Below are positions 50,287-56,103 of a stretch of DNA of 64,000 nucleotides, one piece after another. The notes under the pieces are model-generated. The model did not search any database. It was not told the DNA's origin and worked only from the letters and a program-made list of their open reading frames with translations. The DNA comes from Methylacidimicrobium sp. B4 (GTDB lineage Bacteria > Verrucomicrobiota > Verrucomicrobiia > Methylacidiphilales > Methylacidiphilaceae): NCBI RefSeq assembly GCF_017310545.1, contig NZ_CP066203.1:1054001-1118000 (forward strand). The letters are read 5' to 3'. The first letter of the stretch is position 1. Every line of letters begins with the position of its first letter. A program made the translations under genes and the position numbers.

Positions 50287-50682
50287 TCATCCCGCGGCTT
50301 CCTTCGTGCGCTGCCCGGTCTCATCGTACCGGCGCCGGGCGTGTTGGATGGCGTCGCGATGTTCCAGCGCCCATTCCTCCAAGGCCTGTACCGGCTTGAG
50401 GAGGGTTCGGCCGAGGGCGGTCAATTCGTAATCGACGCGCGGGGGGATCGTTGGCTCGACGGTCCGCTTCACCAGACCGTCTCGCTCGAGACCCCGCAGG
50501 GTCAGCGTAAGCATGCGCTGCGAAATGCCCTCGATCGCCCGTCGAAGCTCGCTGAAGCGTTTCGACCGGTCGCGCAGGAGAACAACGACCAAAATACTCC
50601 ATTTGTCCCCCACTCGGTTCAGCACCTCGCGCACGGCGGGGCAACTCTCCGCGTGAGGCATGCCTTTGGGACTACCTCCCAT
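50287..50682 (-). CDS. HxlR-type winged-helix transcriptional regulator
   Basis: This protein has 131 residues from ATG 50682 (GGAG just upstream). The frame is open further upstream to 51048, but that part lacks family similarity and runs antisense to the nitroreductase gene. '[21 protein letters not shown]' with its conserved Cys, and '[31 protein letters not shown]' (recognition region), are standard HxlR. The Cys suggests a possible redox or electrophile sensor, as in HypR/QorR-like members. It is divergent from the nitroreductase gene, its most probable target, and converges on ilvD. Confidence 0.9.
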
Positions 50683-50961
50683 ATCTCCCTCGCTTTCTCC
50701 TGCCGCTGGCAAGGCGAGCCCGCCCGCTCTGCCTCCGCTTGCTTTTCGCTCCTTGCCGTCTCTTGACAACCAGAGAGCAGAAAGAGCCGGTACCCCGCCT
50801 CGCCTCGCGCCTCCGAGGATTCCGCTGCATAGACAAAATCTGCCAGATGCGCCGGCCCAGTCACAGGAATGTGCCTTCTTGCGCGCGTTTCCTCCCGTTC
50901 CTATTCTAAACGCGGTTACAAAAAAGAACGCAACCAGCAACGATTCAAAAGAAGACATCGC
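50683..50961. promoter_or_regulatory. Divergent intergenic region between HxlR regulator and nitroreductase
   Basis: The 279 nt between the two divergent starts contain no credible gene. The part nearest the nitroreductase (about 50905-50955) is conspicuously A-rich for this genome. It is the likely location of promoters and of an HxlR operator. I could not pick out a clear palindrome or sigma-70 boxes by eye. Confidence 0.4.
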
Positions 50962-51579
50962 ATGATCCATAGCCTGACTACCGCCTCGACGCTCAAGAGA
51001 ATTTCCAACGAAGCCCTGGATCAACTCTTCCGCAAGGCGCGCACCCATTCGGCCTGGCTTCCGACCCCCGTTCCCGTCGAAGAACTCCAGGAGATCTACG
51101 CTCTGACTCGACTCGGCCCCACGAGCGCGAACGGCTCCCCGGCCCGGTTTGTGTTCCTCACGACATCCGCGGCCAAGGAGCGCCTGCTGCCGGCGCTAAC
51201 GCCGGGGAACGTGGAGAAGGCGCGCTCCGCCCCCGTTAACGTGATCATCGCCTGGGACGTCGAGTTCTACGAGAAGCTCCCCACGCTCTTCCCTCACGCG
51301 GACGCGCGTTCGTGGTTCGTCGGGAATCCCGCGCTCGTCGAGGAAACCGCCTTCCGGAACAGCTCTCTTGCCGGGGCCTATTTCATCCTTGCCGCGCGGG
51401 CCATGGGCCTGGACTGCGGTCCGATGTCGGGATTTGACGCCTCGAAAGTCAATGCGGAGTTCTTCCCCGATGGCCGATGGAAGGCGAACTTCCTCTGCAA
51501 TCTCGGCCATGGAGATTCTCGCGGGCTCTTTCCCCGCAGCCCTCGCCTGGAGTTTGAGGAAGCCTGCCTCGTGCTATGA
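50962..51579 (+). CDS. Nitroreductase family protein (RutE/malonic-semialdehyde-reductase-like)
   Basis: This 205-residue FMN-dependent nitroreductase-fold protein has '[40 protein letters not shown]' in consecutive blocks. It continues with '[39 protein letters not shown]' in parts and ends '[19 protein letters not shown]'. This is the pattern of the RutE/YdfG-like 'malonic semialdehyde reductase' subgroup. No pyrimidine (rut) genes are nearby. The divergent HxlR regulator suggests stress- or electrophile-induced expression. ATG 50962 gives the family N-terminus. Confidence 0.9.
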
Positions 51580-51589
51580 GCGCCGGGAC

Positions 51590-51706
51590 CGGAATCTTCC
51601 CCTCGGCCATCCGAATGCCGCCTAGCCCGGGGAGAATAGTACGGAGAAAGAGGGCAGGGCCGTTAATGGCCGAGCCGTTTGCGCACGGGATAAAATTCGG
51701 CCTCAA
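51590..51706 (-). pseudogene. Relic of a third copy of the tandem exported-protein gene (signal-peptide part only)
   Basis: On the minus strand 'NFIPCANGSAINGPALFLRT' and '[15 protein letters not shown]' match, residue by residue, the region around the start and signal peptide of the neighbouring gene 51663-52655 ('NFLPCAGGSAINGPALFLLT', 'AMAQEKSPSAPP'). The similarity stops at the convergent nitroreductase gene, so only the first 35 or so codons of a third copy survive. It overlaps the 3' end of the intact neighbour, just as that gene's start overlaps the next copy. Confidence 0.7.
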
Positions 51707-52655
51707 TCCGGGTGTCGAGCGCTTCCATCCCGCGCACCATCCGATCGTCCTTCAAGGCATCGGCGAGGAAGACGAGCGCATCACGCGTATTACGGTAGGG
51801 GCTGGACGGCAATACCGACACCCTTGCCATCTGGGCAAAGGTGGGATAGGCGTTAGGCCCTTCGACAAACTCGGCGAGCTCTTCCCAAAACCAACTCGGC
51901 ATCCGCGAGAGCTTCCACTGCCCGTCCTCTAAGACAAAAAGCAATCCAAACGTCTTCAAGAACTCGGCCGCTGACCATGGGGAATCCAAGACCTGATGGA
52001 GCTTTTGGGACCCCCATTGGGTGAAGAGAACATAGTATTCGTTAATGGATTCGGTCAGTGGGGGGCGTCGTTTGAAATCCGAGTGCTCCAGGTCATGGAG
52101 CTCGTAGACGGCCTCGCGCTGGACCGGGGTGAGCTCTGCAAGGAAAATCGCCAAGCGGAAGGTCTCCTGTGTTTGGAGAAGTTCCCACTCTTCTGCCTCG
52201 GGGAGACCTAGGTCTCGGCAGACAGCCTCCACCCTCCATTGGGCTAGGGGCTCGAGGATCGCCTGGGGGAGCTGGGCGAACTCGCGGGAGAGCTTGTCTG
52301 TATGCTCGTGGATCTCGGCCTTTCCGGTATCGGTAAAGCGATCGGGCAGCGGCGTCGACCAGCGGCAAGCGAGCATCATGGCACAGGCTCCTTCCGGCAT
52401 CTTGAGGGCTTCGGCAAAGAGCTTGGGGTCGACCTTCTTGAGGAAGGAGATGGTTTGGGGCATCCGAAGCCCTCGGAGCTCTTCGATCACCGCTTGAGCC
52501 TCGGGAGTCGGCGGGGCAGAGGGCGATTTCTCCTGGGCCATGGCACTACCGGCTAACCCGAGCAGAAGGGTAAGGAGAAAGAGGGCAGGGCCGTTAATGG
52601 CGGACCCTCCTGCGCACGGGAGAAAATTCGGCGTCGATCTGCTCCCTAAGCTCAT
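51663..52655 (-). CDS. Exported protein of unknown function, tandem paralog A
   Basis: This 330-residue protein has a probable signal peptide ('ALFLLTLLLGLAGSAMA' ending near residue 40). The mature part begins 'QEKSPSAPPTPEAQAVIEEL'. Recognisable features shared with paralog B are 'TISFLKKVDPKLFAEALK', 'ELTPVQREAVYELHDLEHS', the Trp-rich 'GQWKLSRMPSWFWEELAEF' and 'RDALVFLADALKDDRM'. It is mainly helical, with no catalytic motif and no family I know. The start is unusual. The ATG equivalent to that of paralog B is absent, and the first usable start (52655) lies inside the end of paralog B, giving a 62-nt overlap. Confidence 0.72.
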   Translation of the reverse strand: MSLGSRSTPNFLPCAGGSAINGPALFLLTLLLGLAGSAMAQEKSPSAPPTPEAQAVIEELRGLRMPQTISFLKKVDPKLFAEALKMPEGACAMMLACRWSTPLPDRFTDTGKAEIHEHTDKLSREFAQLPQAILEPLAQWRVEAVCRDLGLPEAEEWELLQTQETFRLAIFLAELTPVQREAVYELHDLEHSDFKRRPPLTESINEYYVLFTQWGSQKLHQVLDSPWSAAEFLKTFGLLFVLEDGQWKLSRMPSWFWEELAEFVEGPNAYPTFAQMARVSVLPSSPYRNTRDALVFLADALKDDRMVRGMEALDTRIEAEFYPVRKRLGH

Positions 52656-53535
52656 CGAGCCTCCGCGTCATCCGATCGTCCTTCAAGGCATCGGCGAGGA
52701 AGACGAGCGCATCGCTGGCTCTACGGTAGGGGCCTGGCAACATTGACTCCCTTGCCATCCGGGCAAAGGTGGGATAGGCGTTAGGCCCTTCGACAAACTC
52801 GGCGAGCGCTTCCCAAAACCAGCTCGGCATCCGCGAGAGCTTCCAGTGCCGGTGTTCCTCGACAAAAACCCATCCAAGCGCCTTGAGGAACTCGGCCGCC
52901 GACCAGGGAGCCTCCAAAACCTGATGGAGCTTTTGAGGACCCCATTGGGTGAAAAGCGCATATTGTTCCTTTAGGATTCCAGGGATTCGGATATCCCGTT
53001 TGAAAATTGAGAAGTCGAGGTCATGGAGCTCGTAGACGGCCTCGCGCTGAACCGGGGTGAGCTTTCCAAGGAAAAACCCCGAGCGGAGCGCATCCTCCGT
53101 ATAGAGAATCTGGTCCTGTTCATCCTCGGGAAGGCTGGAAAATTCTGGGCAGCTTGTCATCCGCCAATAGGCGAGGGGATCGAAGATCGACCGGGGAACT
53201 TGAGCAAACTCTCGGGAGAGCTTGTCGATATATTCCCGAACCCTCGCCTTCCCCTCGTCGGTGCTGCTATCCGGGAGAGGAGTCGACCAGCGGGAGGCGA
53301 GGTCCATCGCCCATCGCCCTTCGGGCGTCTTGAGGGCTTCAGCAAAGAGCTTGGGATCGACCTTCTTGAGGAAGGAGATCGTTTCGGGCATTCGGAGGCT
53401 TTGGAGCTCCTCAATCACCGCTTGAACCTCGGGAGTCGGCGGGGAAGAGGGCGATTTCTCCTGGGCCATGGCACTACCGGCTAACCCGAGGAGAAGGGTA
53501 AGGAGAAAGAGGAGATGGGGAAAGATTCCTTGCAT
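52594..53535 (-). CDS. Exported protein of unknown function, tandem paralog B
   Basis: This protein has 313 residues from ATG 53535, with AGGA about 7 nt upstream. An in-frame start at 53589 would overlap the preceding gene. The signal peptide is 'HLLFLLTLLLGLAGSAMA', with cleavage likely after AMA. The mature part is paralogous to gene A along its length: 'ISFLKKVDPKLFAEALKTPE', 'KLTPVQREAVYELHDLDFS', 'WKLSRMPSWFWEALAEFVEG'. The middle differs most ('MTSCPEFSSLPEDEQDQILY' here). The function is unknown. It starts 13 nt after the TraB/ChaN-like gene and is probably co-transcribed with it. Confidence 0.75.
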   Translation of the reverse strand: MQGIFPHLLFLLTLLLGLAGSAMAQEKSPSSPPTPEVQAVIEELQSLRMPETISFLKKVDPKLFAEALKTPEGRWAMDLASRWSTPLPDSSTDEGKARVREYIDKLSREFAQVPRSIFDPLAYWRMTSCPEFSSLPEDEQDQILYTEDALRSGFFLGKLTPVQREAVYELHDLDFSIFKRDIRIPGILKEQYALFTQWGPQKLHQVLEAPWSAAEFLKALGWVFVEEHRHWKLSRMPSWFWEALAEFVEGPNAYPTFARMARESMLPGPYRRASDALVFLADALKDDRMTRRLDELREQIDAEFSPVRRRVRH

Positions 53536-53548
53536 GGCTTTTCCTGAG

Positions 53549-54466
53549 TTAGGGGTCTTTCTCGTACCACGGCTGGTCGGAGAGTCCATTTCTCATAGCC
53601 TCTTCCCGCCTCCACCTCTTTGCCTCCTCTTGCTTCCACCAGAGCCAGAGTGCCCGGACCAAGGTCCGCACTGCCGGCTGCTTCCGGTCATCGACGGCCC
53701 GAAACGGGTCCTGGGCATTACCCTTGCGCATCTCGGCGTTGAGCTCCTCTAAGCTCTTCCCGTCAAGCCCGTAGGCGGCCGATTCGGCCAGCCGTCCCTC
53801 TGGGCTTAGCTCGCCTGGGGCAATGGCAATCACACGGAGGCCATCCCTTTCGAACATGTCGTTGAGCCGGCCCTCGCCAAAGCCTACGTGGTCCTCTCCC
53901 GCGATGATGGCAAAGGGGCCGCGGCTATGCTCGGCCACCTGCTTCATCGACTCGTTGCGGTCATGCATCCCACGTGGATCCATTAAGTAGTCCAGGATCT
54001 GGTCGGAAGTGGGATTCTCAGTCACAAGCTTGCCGGTCGTTTTGTCTAGCCCCACGTTGCGGGGAAGGTCACCCGCCAGCACGGCAAACCCCATTCGATT
54101 TGCAGCGAGCCACATCCGGGCCATCCGCATCTCAGCTTGATAGAAGGCGACTCGGGCATCGGTCAGGTTAGGGTCGGCCCTTTGCGCCTCTCTCGGGTTG
54201 GCGTCGACCGCCTGAAGCTCGTGGGCTAGCCGAGCGACCACTTTCGCCCTTTTCGCCGGCTCCATTCCAACCATCTCGAGGATGAACGCCTCAAGCGCGT
54301 CGGCCATGTTCGCATAGGTCGGATTCTCGAGGTAGCGGTTGAGCCTCGCCTGCTGGTCCTTGGGATACTCGATGATCAGGGTTTGTACGCCATGCCGCCG
54401 GAGCAATTCGAGAAACTCCTTCTCCCGCTGGATCATGGCGGGATCAAAATGCCACTCGCCCAGCAC
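53549..54466 (-). CDS. TraB/ChaN-like domain protein, probably the C-terminal part of a frameshifted exported protein
   Basis: This frame of 305 residues is read from GTG 54466. It begins immediately with 'LGEWHFDPAMIQREKEFLEL', resembling the first strand of TraB/ChaN/erythromycin-esterase-like domains, in which a G-E-x-H motif is catalytic or metal binding. A later 'IIAGEDHVGFGEGRLNDMF' recalls the second conserved His region of the same fold. A domain that begins at its first strand, with no leader, is odd. The upstream frame provides a signal peptide and linker and overlaps by 34 nt. Adding one G to the GGGG run near 54482 would fuse both into one protein of about 550 residues. The family assignment is tentative. 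Confidence 0.6.
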   Translation of the reverse strand: MLGEWHFDPAMIQREKEFLELLRRHGVQTLIIEYPKDQQARLNRYLENPTYANMADALEAFILEMVGMEPAKRAKVVARLAHELQAVDANPREAQRADPNLTDARVAFYQAEMRMARMWLAANRMGFAVLAGDLPRNVGLDKTTGKLVTENPTSDQILDYLMDPRGMHDRNESMKQVAEHSRGPFAIIAGEDHVGFGEGRLNDMFERDGLRVIAIAPGELSPEGRLAESAAYGLDGKSLEELNAEMRKGNAQDPFRAVDDRKQPAVRTLVRALWLWWKQEEAKRWRREEAMRNGLSDQPWYEKDP

Positions 54467-55146
54467 ATATCCCGAATTCCCCAGAGATTGACCAAGGCCG
54501 CGACCTCCATCGGATCGATCCCGTTGGCGATCTCGTTGTGCAACTGGTTGAGCAGGCTGGCGATCTGCTCAATTGCGTTCTTCGGGGGAGTGGTCGCCGG
54601 CTGGCCCGCTTGGGCTTCGGGGTTGCGATCCCCCATGGGACGTGCCCAGGCGGGCCGGTCGGAGAAGTCGCTTGGCGGCTCGCGCGAGGCCGCCTTGAGT
54701 TGCGCGGCCTGGGATTGGAGGAGCTCGCTTCGGGTCGGCCAGCGGGCCTTCGGGAGGTTCGGGGGATCGGTGTCGCTCTGTGTGCTCTCTTGCGAGGCGC
54801 CGCCGTCACTGCCCGCCATTCCGGGAGGGCTCGGGCTTGGGGTAGCTGGCTCTTGTGGCGCGGCTTGTGGCTGCGCCGGAAGCGGAGGACAGGCGTTGCA
54901 GGGGTCGGTCGGCGAAGGGGAGGATGGATCGGTGGAGCCGCCCGGCAGGACCGAGCTCATGGTGCCCGCTCCGCTCGGCGCCGCTGGTGCCTCCCCTTGT
55001 TGGGCCGAGCCGTCTGGCTCCGGCAGCGCGCTCTGGGCAAGCGAGGGAATCGGGGTGCAGGGAAGGATCAGGCAGAGGAGGAAAAGGATGCCTACGGCCC
55101 GCGTGAAGGCCTGGGAACAGTTGAGCCTTTTCGACACCCCTTCCAC
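54433..55146 (-). CDS. Proline-rich exported protein, probably the N-terminal part of the same frameshifted gene
   Basis: This frame of 237 residues is read from GTG 55146 (GGGGAG upstream). It has a signal peptide ('AVGILFLLCLILPCTPIPSLAQ'-like, about residues 18-38). A long low-complexity Pro/Ser/Gly/Ala stretch (about 40-125) follows, then a more ordered end 'NAIEQIASLLNQLHNEIANG'. The stop comes 34 nt after the start of the TraB/ChaN-like frame. It has no domain of its own that I recognise. It reads best as leader plus linker of the downstream domain, separated by a one-base loss in a G run. Confidence 0.55.
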   Translation of the reverse strand: MEGVSKRLNCSQAFTRAVGILFLLCLILPCTPIPSLAQSALPEPDGSAQQGEAPAAPSGAGTMSSVLPGGSTDPSSPSPTDPCNACPPLPAQPQAAPQEPATPSPSPPGMAGSDGGASQESTQSDTDPPNLPKARWPTRSELLQSQAAQLKAASREPPSDFSDRPAWARPMGDRNPEAQAGQPATTPPKNAIEQIASLLNQLHNEIANGIDPMEVAALVNLWGIRDMCWASGILIPP

Positions 55147-56103
55147 GATTCGCTCCCCACATCCTCTGTTAGGCGATCGGGGCCTCGCGCGCACCCGGTC
55201 CTCGACAAGAAGTTTTGGTCCGGCCGGCTTGCGCCAAAAGAGCCACTTGTCGAACGGACGCCGCCTGTTCTGCCGCCGAGCGAAGGCGAGCTTACGAAGC
55301 GGGATTGCCTGAATCCCTCAAGCGGCTGGGCTGCTGGAAGAAGGAGGCGGAATGGGGGACGGTCGATCCGGTGCCCGGGCTCCCCTCCTCTCTGCCTGCG
55401 CCAAGACGATTGCAGTGCGTAATAGCGCTTCTTGGCTTCTTTTGGCGAGGGGTTGCCGTGATCGAAGTCCACCCCACCGACGCTCCCCGGATCGATGCGG
55501 TGAACTCCATGCGGGCGGCCATCGTCACGATCCGTAACGGGGCTATCTCACGCTCCCGCAACCCGCAAGGAATCGGGCGAAGCCTGTCGGTTCCTTCTGG
55601 TCAACCGTCTGCGAAAGAGGGAACGCGGCGCATGCGGAGCGTGCCGGACGGGAGGCTGGCGAGAGCCGCCCGCGCCTTTGCTTCCGGAAACGAGAGCATG
55701 GGTCGCTAGATCAGCGTCGCCGGTGGAACACCGGCAGATGAACTGCCGGCAATGCTCTTTGGCGGACGAGCGGGACGGTCTCCCTCGGGAGATCAAGCGT
55801 TATCTCTAGTTCCAGGGACGGAAAAAAAGGTCCCCGTGCTGCCGTGTGGAAATGAGGCCTTTCGACCACTTTGCAGGCAAGTGGGAGCCTTGCCGCGTGC
55901 CTCCGTCTTCCAGCGAAGGCCTGGCGTCGGCAGCGCGTGCAATGCCGGCTCCCGTAATCGAACTTATCGGAGGAAAGGCGCGCATTCCAAGCACGAGCAG
56001 CATAGGGAAATTCTTCGCAAGCTCTCCGTGCAAAACTGCTTCCGCAGCCCGCTCGCTCCCGGGCTACTCCCGCTTTCGTCAAAGAACCCACCGGCCGCTC
56101 GAC
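55147..56103. other. 957-nt region without an intact gene
   Basis: The longest gene-free stretch in the window lies between the start of the exported-protein cluster and the 3' end of pheT. Open frames here are short, conflict with each other and match nothing I know. The middle part (about 55450-55760) is a decayed IS607-type tnpB piece. No tRNA-like cloverleaf or obvious terminator was recognised. A promoter for the exported-protein cluster should lie near 55150-55250. Confidence 0.6.
55450..55760 (+). mobile_element. Degenerate remnant of the IS607-type element (tnpB 3' part)
   Basis: Scattered but collinear similarity to the end of tnpB is visible. 'gatcgaagtc' and the bases after it (about 55459) correspond to the 'IEVDPAYTS' region. 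'gaatcgggcgaagcctgt' (about 55570) and 'gagagccgcccgcgcctttg' (about 55663) match copy 2 nearly exactly around 42792 and 42885. The segment between is internally deleted and no open frame survives. It lies in the same orientation as copy 2. Its ends cannot be set exactly. Confidence 0.55.

What the first reader, a model, noticed from the sequence alone, without database searches (positions are those of the whole stretch)
51590..55146. Candidate undescribed system: a cluster of exported proteins with tandem paralogs and a GE-x-H domain protein
All genes run in one direction with overlaps or gaps under 15 nt. All have or belong to a signal-peptide protein, and none matches a family I know except a tentative TraB/ChaN-like domain. 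The paralogs keep a Trp-rich motif ('KLSRMPSWFWE') and differ most in the middle, as expected of binding partners or of proteins under diversifying selection. IS remnants and relic copies mark it as the most plastic part of the window.
Basis: inference. Interest (0 to 1): 0.5.

Follow-up and report, generated by a model that had tools for sequence, protein, structure and literature searches.

The report
Mobile exported toxin and immunity cassette
This stretch of an acid-loving methane-eating bacterium looks like a movable set of genes for an exported toxin and its protective partner proteins, used in contests between bacteria; here the toxin gene is broken but the protectors are kept.

Summary
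The cluster is real: an exported EreA/ChaN-fold (TIKI-fold) protein, split by a frameshift in this copy, then two tandem exported all-helical paralogs (P1, P2). The pair recurs across one genus (Methylacidimicrobium); all 12 P clusters whose upstream DNA was held begin with a ChaN-like "head", and P was not found outside the genus in the genomes searched. The window head's leader is also joined to two unrelated C-terminal domains: one with papain/NlpC-like motifs, followed by a different exported paralog array, and one matching a solved PT-VENN toxin (E 1.7e-5), followed by non-exported CPCC-like proteins. Heads are mosaic: two share 97% of leader nucleotides but only 63-73% afterwards, and one locus's orphan C-terminal piece is 94% identical to another locus's head. 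Position-1 P type matches head type in 4 of 4 loci compared. The insert is absent from this site in sister strain LP2A. I read it as a Sec-exported polymorphic toxin-immunity system resembling Neisseria MafB/MafI, with a new leader, an EreA/ChaN-fold toxin domain and a new exported immunity family. Toxicity, protection and delivery are untested; no T6SS sheath or secretin was found in this genome.

The parts
51596..55823 (.). whole insert: toxin-immunity cassette plus repeat remnant, absent from this site in LP2A
   Evidence: Window flanks ending at 51595 and starting at 55824 have 183 bp between them in G001 (C2:269123/269307); ilvD-side and pheT-side matches are 105-318 bp apart in G002, G004, G006 and 4.5 kb apart, without P or ChaN-like match, in G005
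54433..55194 (-). leader half of the ChaN-like head: signal peptide, P/A-rich linker, CNACPPLP, NLPKARWPT...RPAWA motif (motif about 54613-54789)
   Evidence: shared with other head classes
53549..54466 (-). EreA/ChaN-fold domain half, GEWHFD; separated from the leader by a frameshift, so this copy is probably inactive
   Evidence: fold taken from the intact paralog L052
52594..53535 (-). P1, exported all-helical protein, proposed immunity protein (longer start possible at 53589)
51663..52655 (-). P2, second exported paralog, proposed immunity protein; 94% identical to the LP2A copy
51597..51706 (-). relic of the start of a third P copy, cut at the left edge of the insert
   Evidence: ORF 51449-51706 begins MRPNFIPCANGSAINGPALF; longer stub in LP2A
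55506..55821 (.). dispersed multi-copy repeat at the right end of the insert
   Evidence: no Pfam match
55827..56011 (-). 6S RNA gene in the flank; its 3' end abuts the insert
   Evidence: RF00013, 52.7 bits, gathering score 46.4

Best explanation
The cluster is one module of a genus-specific, Sec-exported polymorphic toxin-immunity system. Full-length heads carry a signal peptide and a leader, followed by an exchangeable C-terminal toxin domain, here an EreA/ChaN (TIKI)-fold hydrolase that probably cuts a target in the periplasm or envelope of neighbouring cells. The tandem exported P proteins are periplasmic immunity proteins that bind and block it; arrays keep several P types, so a cell resists more than its own toxin. 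Recombination swaps leaders and C-terminal parts between loci and shuffles P copies. In this copy the head is frameshifted, so P1 and P2 probably act as immunity without a working local toxin. Shown: gene order, shared leader, predicted fold, mosaics, change of site. Inferred: toxicity, immunity, target, delivery.
For: (1) In 12 of 12 P clusters whose upstream DNA was held, a ChaN-like head lies directly upstream. (2) The window leader is shared with heads of other C-terminal classes: vs NlpC-like head L096 E 1.6e-17, L098 2.8e-9, L095 3.1e-8, PT-VENN-like leader 8e-5; 0 of 260 shuffled sequences below 1e-2. A profile of NlpC-like heads finds the window leader at 1.3e-26 and a G006 ChaN head (L075 type) at 1.2e-9; the L052 leader matches the LP2A ortholog of the window leader at 2e-6. 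(3) Each class is followed by its own partner family. The PT-VENN-like domain matches 8ey4 (E 1.7e-5) and its partners have CPCC-like motifs and no visible signal peptide; partners of the other two classes are exported. (4) Orphan C-terminal pieces lie in arrays of all three classes: six ChaN loci, one NlpC-like locus (L098), one PT-VENN-like locus. (5) Heads L051/L052: leader 97% nt, later parts 73% and 63%; L051/L053: leader 80%, later parts 91% and 98%; L052 C-third vs the L051 orphan 94%. (6) P at position 1 is type A behind A heads (L051, L053) and type B behind B heads (L052, L055). (7) Fold: HopBA1 Z 13.2, ChaN 13.0, EreC 12.8, RRSP 11.1, PMT 10.8, next unrelated 7.4; the two Glu and two His essential in RRSP (PMC6254334 passages) have invariant counterparts E174, H176, E203, H364 (my assignment). 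(8) PHI below all 1000 permutations in each of three sets. (9) Nearly empty sites both ways between G000 and LP2A.
Against: No toxicity or protection was tested. No delivery machine was identified: VipB in 0 of 13 genomes, secretin in 1 of 13 and not in this one. Only 2 of 7 ChaN heads compared (window, L075) match another class's leader directly at E 0.01 or better; L051-L053 link only through the window type, and L056 and L073 show neither short leader motif. Both PT-VENN-like heads are interrupted: in one the leader and domain are in different frames; in the other one ORF holds the leader motif's end (E 4.5e-7) and the domain, but the signal-peptide part is in another frame. Orphan ChaN pieces hold only about the last third of the domain; the four of the main type share one TAG, so probably one origin, and each follows a B-type P rather than preceding an immunity gene of its own. 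Two ChaN heads have no P nearby (G004 C103; a truncated G001 copy). The NlpC-like label rests on motifs only. The 4-of-4 type match is a small sample and three of the four loci are paralogs in one genome.
Confidence: 0.67

Rival explanations
1. A housekeeping exported EreA/ChaN-fold enzyme (ester, peptide or haem handling) with P proteins as accessory subunits, inhibitors or substrates; no conflict role.
For: Fold relatives include the haem-binding ChaN and the esterase EreC; both partners are exported; most ChaN heads do not match the other classes' leaders directly.
Against: Does not explain the window leader on unrelated C-terminal domains with other partner arrays, the C-terminal exchange, orphan pieces, change of site or absence from the 6 other same-family genomes.
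Confidence: 0.17
2. A decaying, recombining gene family with no present function at this locus; tandem copies are recombination debris.
For: The head is frameshifted here and, at other places, in LP2A; dN/dS 1.02 in its last 129 residues; one of ten P matches of G000 is broken by a stop; relic P copy and repeat.
Against: P2 has dN/dS 0.38 against LP2A (18 and 14 changes), but the head's other parts are similar (0.30-0.46), so this does not single out P; three other heads of this genome are open and align throughout; 9 P copies of this genome are open with median pairwise dN/dS 0.37.
Confidence: 0.1
3. Surface antigens or anti-phage proteins varied by gene conversion among tandem copies.
For: Mosaic arrays; exported proteins.
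Against: No PADLOC match for P1; no match of P in phage or plasmid records or viral contigs; P type goes with head type at position 1.
Confidence: 0.06

Closest known systems
MafB/MafI of Neisseria (PMC4287609, PMC3482391, PMC7738311; passages only)
   Same: Signal peptide, genus-restricted N-terminal region, variable C-terminal toxin, immunity genes downstream, C-terminal cassettes in the locus (some without a start codon), islands with IS pieces
   Different: The leader is P/A-rich and modelled with low confidence (probably disordered); no DUF1020 match; a MafA-like lipoprotein was not searched for; P arrays are exported; main-type orphan ChaN pieces follow, not precede, a P gene
EreA/ChaN (TIKI) fold enzymes: EreC, ChaN, BcR135, HopBA1, RRSP, PMT C2 domain
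   Same: Core fold (Z 10.5-13.2) and the invariant Glu/His set
   Different: Long linker after a signal peptide; beside an exported partner array; no substrate known
CDI/PT-VENN toxins
   Same: A sister class in the genus has a C-terminal domain matching PDB 8ey4
   Different: Heads read here are 342-547 residues long, without a filamentous CdiA body

Membership tests
Polymorphic toxin system | One N-terminal region joined to different C-terminal domains | tested here: met
   Window-type leader with three C-terminal classes; direct match for 2 of 7 ChaN heads compared
Polymorphic toxin system | Specific partner gene directly downstream | tested here: met
   ChaN then P in 12 of 12 P clusters with upstream DNA held; 6 of 6 aligned NlpC-like heads and the PT-VENN-like locus with their own partner families; function untested
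Polymorphic toxin system | C-terminal exchange with orphan cassettes | tested here: met
   Mosaic heads; orphan o51 94% identical to head L052
Polymorphic toxin system | Toxic C-terminal domain neutralised by its partner | not testable with these tools
   Needs expression
MafB | DUF1020 (MafB-N) after the signal peptide | tested here: not met
   No such Pfam match in the heads scanned
MafB | MafA lipoprotein gene upstream | not tested
   An exported protein with a weak GspD-N0-like match lies upstream at 3 loci (L095, L097, L099); MafA itself was not searched
EreA/ChaN (TIKI) fold | Core fold | tested here: met
   Z 10.5-13.2 against 7.4 for the next group; Pfam PF04187 only below cut-off (best 0.0026, 4 of 9)
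EreA/ChaN (TIKI) fold | Two Glu and two His of the active site | tested here: met
   Invariant in 9 of 9 rows of A2; pairing with RRSP residues is my assignment
T6SS effector | T6SS sheath in the genome | tested here: not met
   VipB in 0 of 13 family genomes; control rang in E. coli

The most novel reading that the evidence does not exclude
A Sec-exported polymorphic toxin system confined to acidophilic verrucomicrobial methanotrophs, in which an EreA/ChaN-fold enzyme is an antibacterial toxin acting outside the cytoplasm, countered by a new all-helical periplasmic immunity family whose tandem arrays are re-assorted by gene conversion to cover several toxin types.
Probability: 0.45. Interest if true: 0.75.

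Novelty: new variant of a known kind. Interest (0 to 1): 0.62.

Why it matters
It would put warfare between close relatives into methanotrophs of extreme acid soils, add the EreA/ChaN fold to the enzymes used between bacteria, and give sister toxin classes whose partner's location (exported or not) predicts where each toxin acts. My paper searches found nothing on it: one search listed 4 papers with the genus name and 'toxin', none on its toxins by title or abstract; two searches found none; one search listed 8 of 41 papers, none holding 'TIKI'; one search listed 20 of 96 papers naming the genus. Only the open PMC library was searched.

Tried and rejected
P against Pfam, NCBIfam, PADLOC and PDB sequences: nothing above cut-off or at a convincing E. 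Foldseek for P against PDB and BFVD: 0 matches at E 0.001; the structural second look gave Z up to 6.0, within the range of common helical arrangements, so a new fold is not claimed. P in plasmids, phages and viral contigs: none. T6SS and secretin as delivery: not found here. Positive selection on P: not supported. NlpC/P60 label by profile: not confirmed. Rfam in the insert: only the flanking 6S RNA. TAG as a recoded codon: considered because stops recur in relics, not pursued. Paper searches that returned nothing.

Full report
What is there. Window 51.6-55.2 kb holds a minus-strand cluster: a leader half (55194-54433), an EreA/ChaN-like half in another frame (54466-53549) and two exported paralogs, P1 and P2. 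The window lies at G000:C1:1054001-1118000 of a 2.37 Mb genome. Named relatives are Methylacidimicrobium species, strain LP2A and the STB_62 MAG, so I place it in Methylacidimicrobium by inference.

Distribution. P occurs in 7 of 60 genomes searched: all 7 of the genus, 0 of 6 in other genera of the family and 0 of 47 elsewhere in the order. G000 has 10 P matches in four clusters; G005 has 13 matches, fragments included, in two clusters. In 12 of 12 clusters whose upstream DNA was held, a ChaN-like head lies directly upstream: window, L051, L052, L053, L054/L070, L055/L071, L056, L057, L058, L059/L073, L075 and L007 (where the contig begins inside the head). One P fragment in G004 lies at a contig end and cannot be judged. 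Two heads have no P near them: G004 C103, and a truncated G001 copy.

The head domain. The model of the intact L052 head (mean pLDDT 72; residues 1-150 below 50) has a confident C-terminal domain. It matches EreA/ChaN-fold structures with Z 10.5-13.2 (HopBA1, ChaN, BcR135, EreC, RRSP, PMT), the next group reaching 7.4; Foldseek's best E was 4e-4. Pfam's ChaN family is reached only below its cut-off. E174, H176, E203 and H364 (L052 numbering) are invariant in 9 of 9 rows. RRSP needs two His and two Glu (H3902, H4030, E3900, E3930; PMC6254334, passages), and Ere enzymes use His50, Glu78, His289 and Glu47 (PMC7979712, passages). The head is therefore probably an active hydrolase; its substrate is unknown.

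The P family. P1 is predicted all-helical with good confidence (pLDDT 84, pTM 0.81), without a convincing match. Among 9 open copies in G000 the median pairwise dN/dS is 0.37; among 8 young copies in G005 it is 0.84. Recombination between copies is strong: the PHI statistic was below all 1000 permutations in each of three sets.

The key finding: one leader, several C-terminal domains. Searching with the window's leader half also found proteins without a ChaN-like domain. Their shared part includes a (S/N)-D-T-D-P-P-N-L-x-K-A-R-W-P-T ... RPAWA ... GD motif. Heads with papain/NlpC-like motifs (Cys, GH-x-G and ST invariant in 6 of 6) occur in L095, L096, L097, L098, L101 and L102, each followed by members of an exported family unrelated to P, five in tandem in L095. 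In L099 a C-terminal domain matches PT-VENN toxin 8ey4 (E 1.7e-5); it is followed by proteins with CPCC-like motifs (PF14206 E 9e-4 and a rubredoxin-like family E 2e-4, both below cut-off) and no visible signal peptide. In these proteins a copy of the C-terminal domain is itself fused between two CPCC units. Both PT-VENN-like heads are interrupted: in one, leader and domain are in different frames; in the other, one ORF holds the end of the leader motif (E 4.5e-7) and the domain, its signal-peptide part being in another frame.

How strong the leader link is. Cross-class matches run from E 1.6e-17 to 2e-3, against 0 of 260 shuffled sequences below 1e-2. Of 7 ChaN heads compared, the window's and L075's match another class directly; L052's leader matches the LP2A ortholog of the window leader (2e-6) and, with L051 and L053, carries CxxCPPLP and N-V-R-K-A-P-W; L056 and L073 show neither motif. 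The 59-residue leader profile gives E 1e-7 or better in 5 of 7 genus genomes, 0.002 in G002 and 0.018 in G006 (the last probably chance), and none at 0.1 in 6 others of the family. The whole NlpC-like head profile hits 7 of 7 genus genomes and 0 of 6 others, and 2 of a 288-genome phylum sample, both of the genus.

Exchange. Heads L051 and L052 are identical over about 360 nt of the leader but fall to 73% and then 63% in the C-terminal domain, whereas L051 and L053 are 80% in the leader and 91-98% after it. The last third of head L052 is 94% identical to an orphan piece in the L051 array, while heads L051 and L052 are 63% identical there. Orthologous NlpC-like heads show the same contrast: leader 93%, C-terminus 73% protein identity. 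P proteins fall into types by their last 115 residues; the P behind each head is type A for the A heads (L051, L053) and type B for the B heads (L052, L055), 4 of 4, while the window and LP2A form a third type. Arrays of A heads also carry type B P copies, as expected for stored immunity to other toxins. Against a simple reading, all four main orphans follow a B-type P, share a TAG at the same place and hold only about the last third of the domain. Orphan pieces behind P also occur in L075 and L007.

Mobility. The window flanks have 183 bp between them in LP2A, where the cassette (85-95% identical) lies elsewhere; the LP2A site is in turn nearly empty in G000 (984 bp between flanks). At this locus the ilvD and pheT sides are 105-318 bp apart in G002, G004 and G006; in G005 they are 4.5 kb apart, with no P or ChaN-like match there. 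The insert's right end carries a dispersed repeat and abuts the 3' end of a 6S RNA gene.

This copy. The head is frameshifted here and, differently, in LP2A. Against LP2A its last 129 residues show dN/dS 1.02, its other parts 0.30-0.46, and P2 0.38, all on few changes; so decay is visible only in the head's end, and P2 is not clearly better kept than the rest. P1 and P2 may be immunity genes outliving their toxin.

Comparison. Zhang et al. 2012 (PMC3482391, passages) describe Sec/T2SS-exported polymorphic toxins with lineage-specific domains after the signal peptide, MafB being the best example. The MafB paper of 2015 (PMC4287609, passages) describes mafB-CT cassettes, some without a start codon, with mafI genes. 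The present system works like these but is not MafB: DUF1020 was not found. Delivery is open: no VipB in 13 genomes, and a secretin only in G002. Toxicity, immunity and the target remain inferred.

Noticed in passing
L099 6675-7589, 7921-8835, 10587-11501: Proteins made of CPCC unit, toxin C-terminal-like domain and CPCC unit in one frame, repeated with 97-99% identity: an immunity-toxin-immunity fusion array.
   Followed up: partly
L095 6831-5902, L097 6362-5436, L099 3978-4706: Exported protein with a weak GspD-N0-like match just upstream of heads at three loci; possible exporter or anchor.
   Followed up: partly
window 55827-56011: 6S RNA gene whose 3' end abuts the insert; possible integration site.
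   Followed up: partly
window 55506-55821: Dispersed repeat: 15 matches in G000 including itself and partial ones, about 14 in G001 and 16 in G005 among the matches listed. G005 copies read like the end of a transposon protein by eye, unconfirmed.
   Followed up: partly
window 50287-51579: HxlR regulator and nitroreductase genes beside the insert are kept at this site in LP2A, but the matches of G002, G004, G005 and G006 at this site stop before them.
   Followed up: no
L098 3437-4117, L100 626-1300, L101 2681-3352: A conserved protein family of about 227 residues near NlpC-like heads in three genomes.
   Followed up: no
heads in window, L054, L099: Frameshifts recur in several heads; real decay, phase variation or assembly error is not decided.
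   Followed up: no
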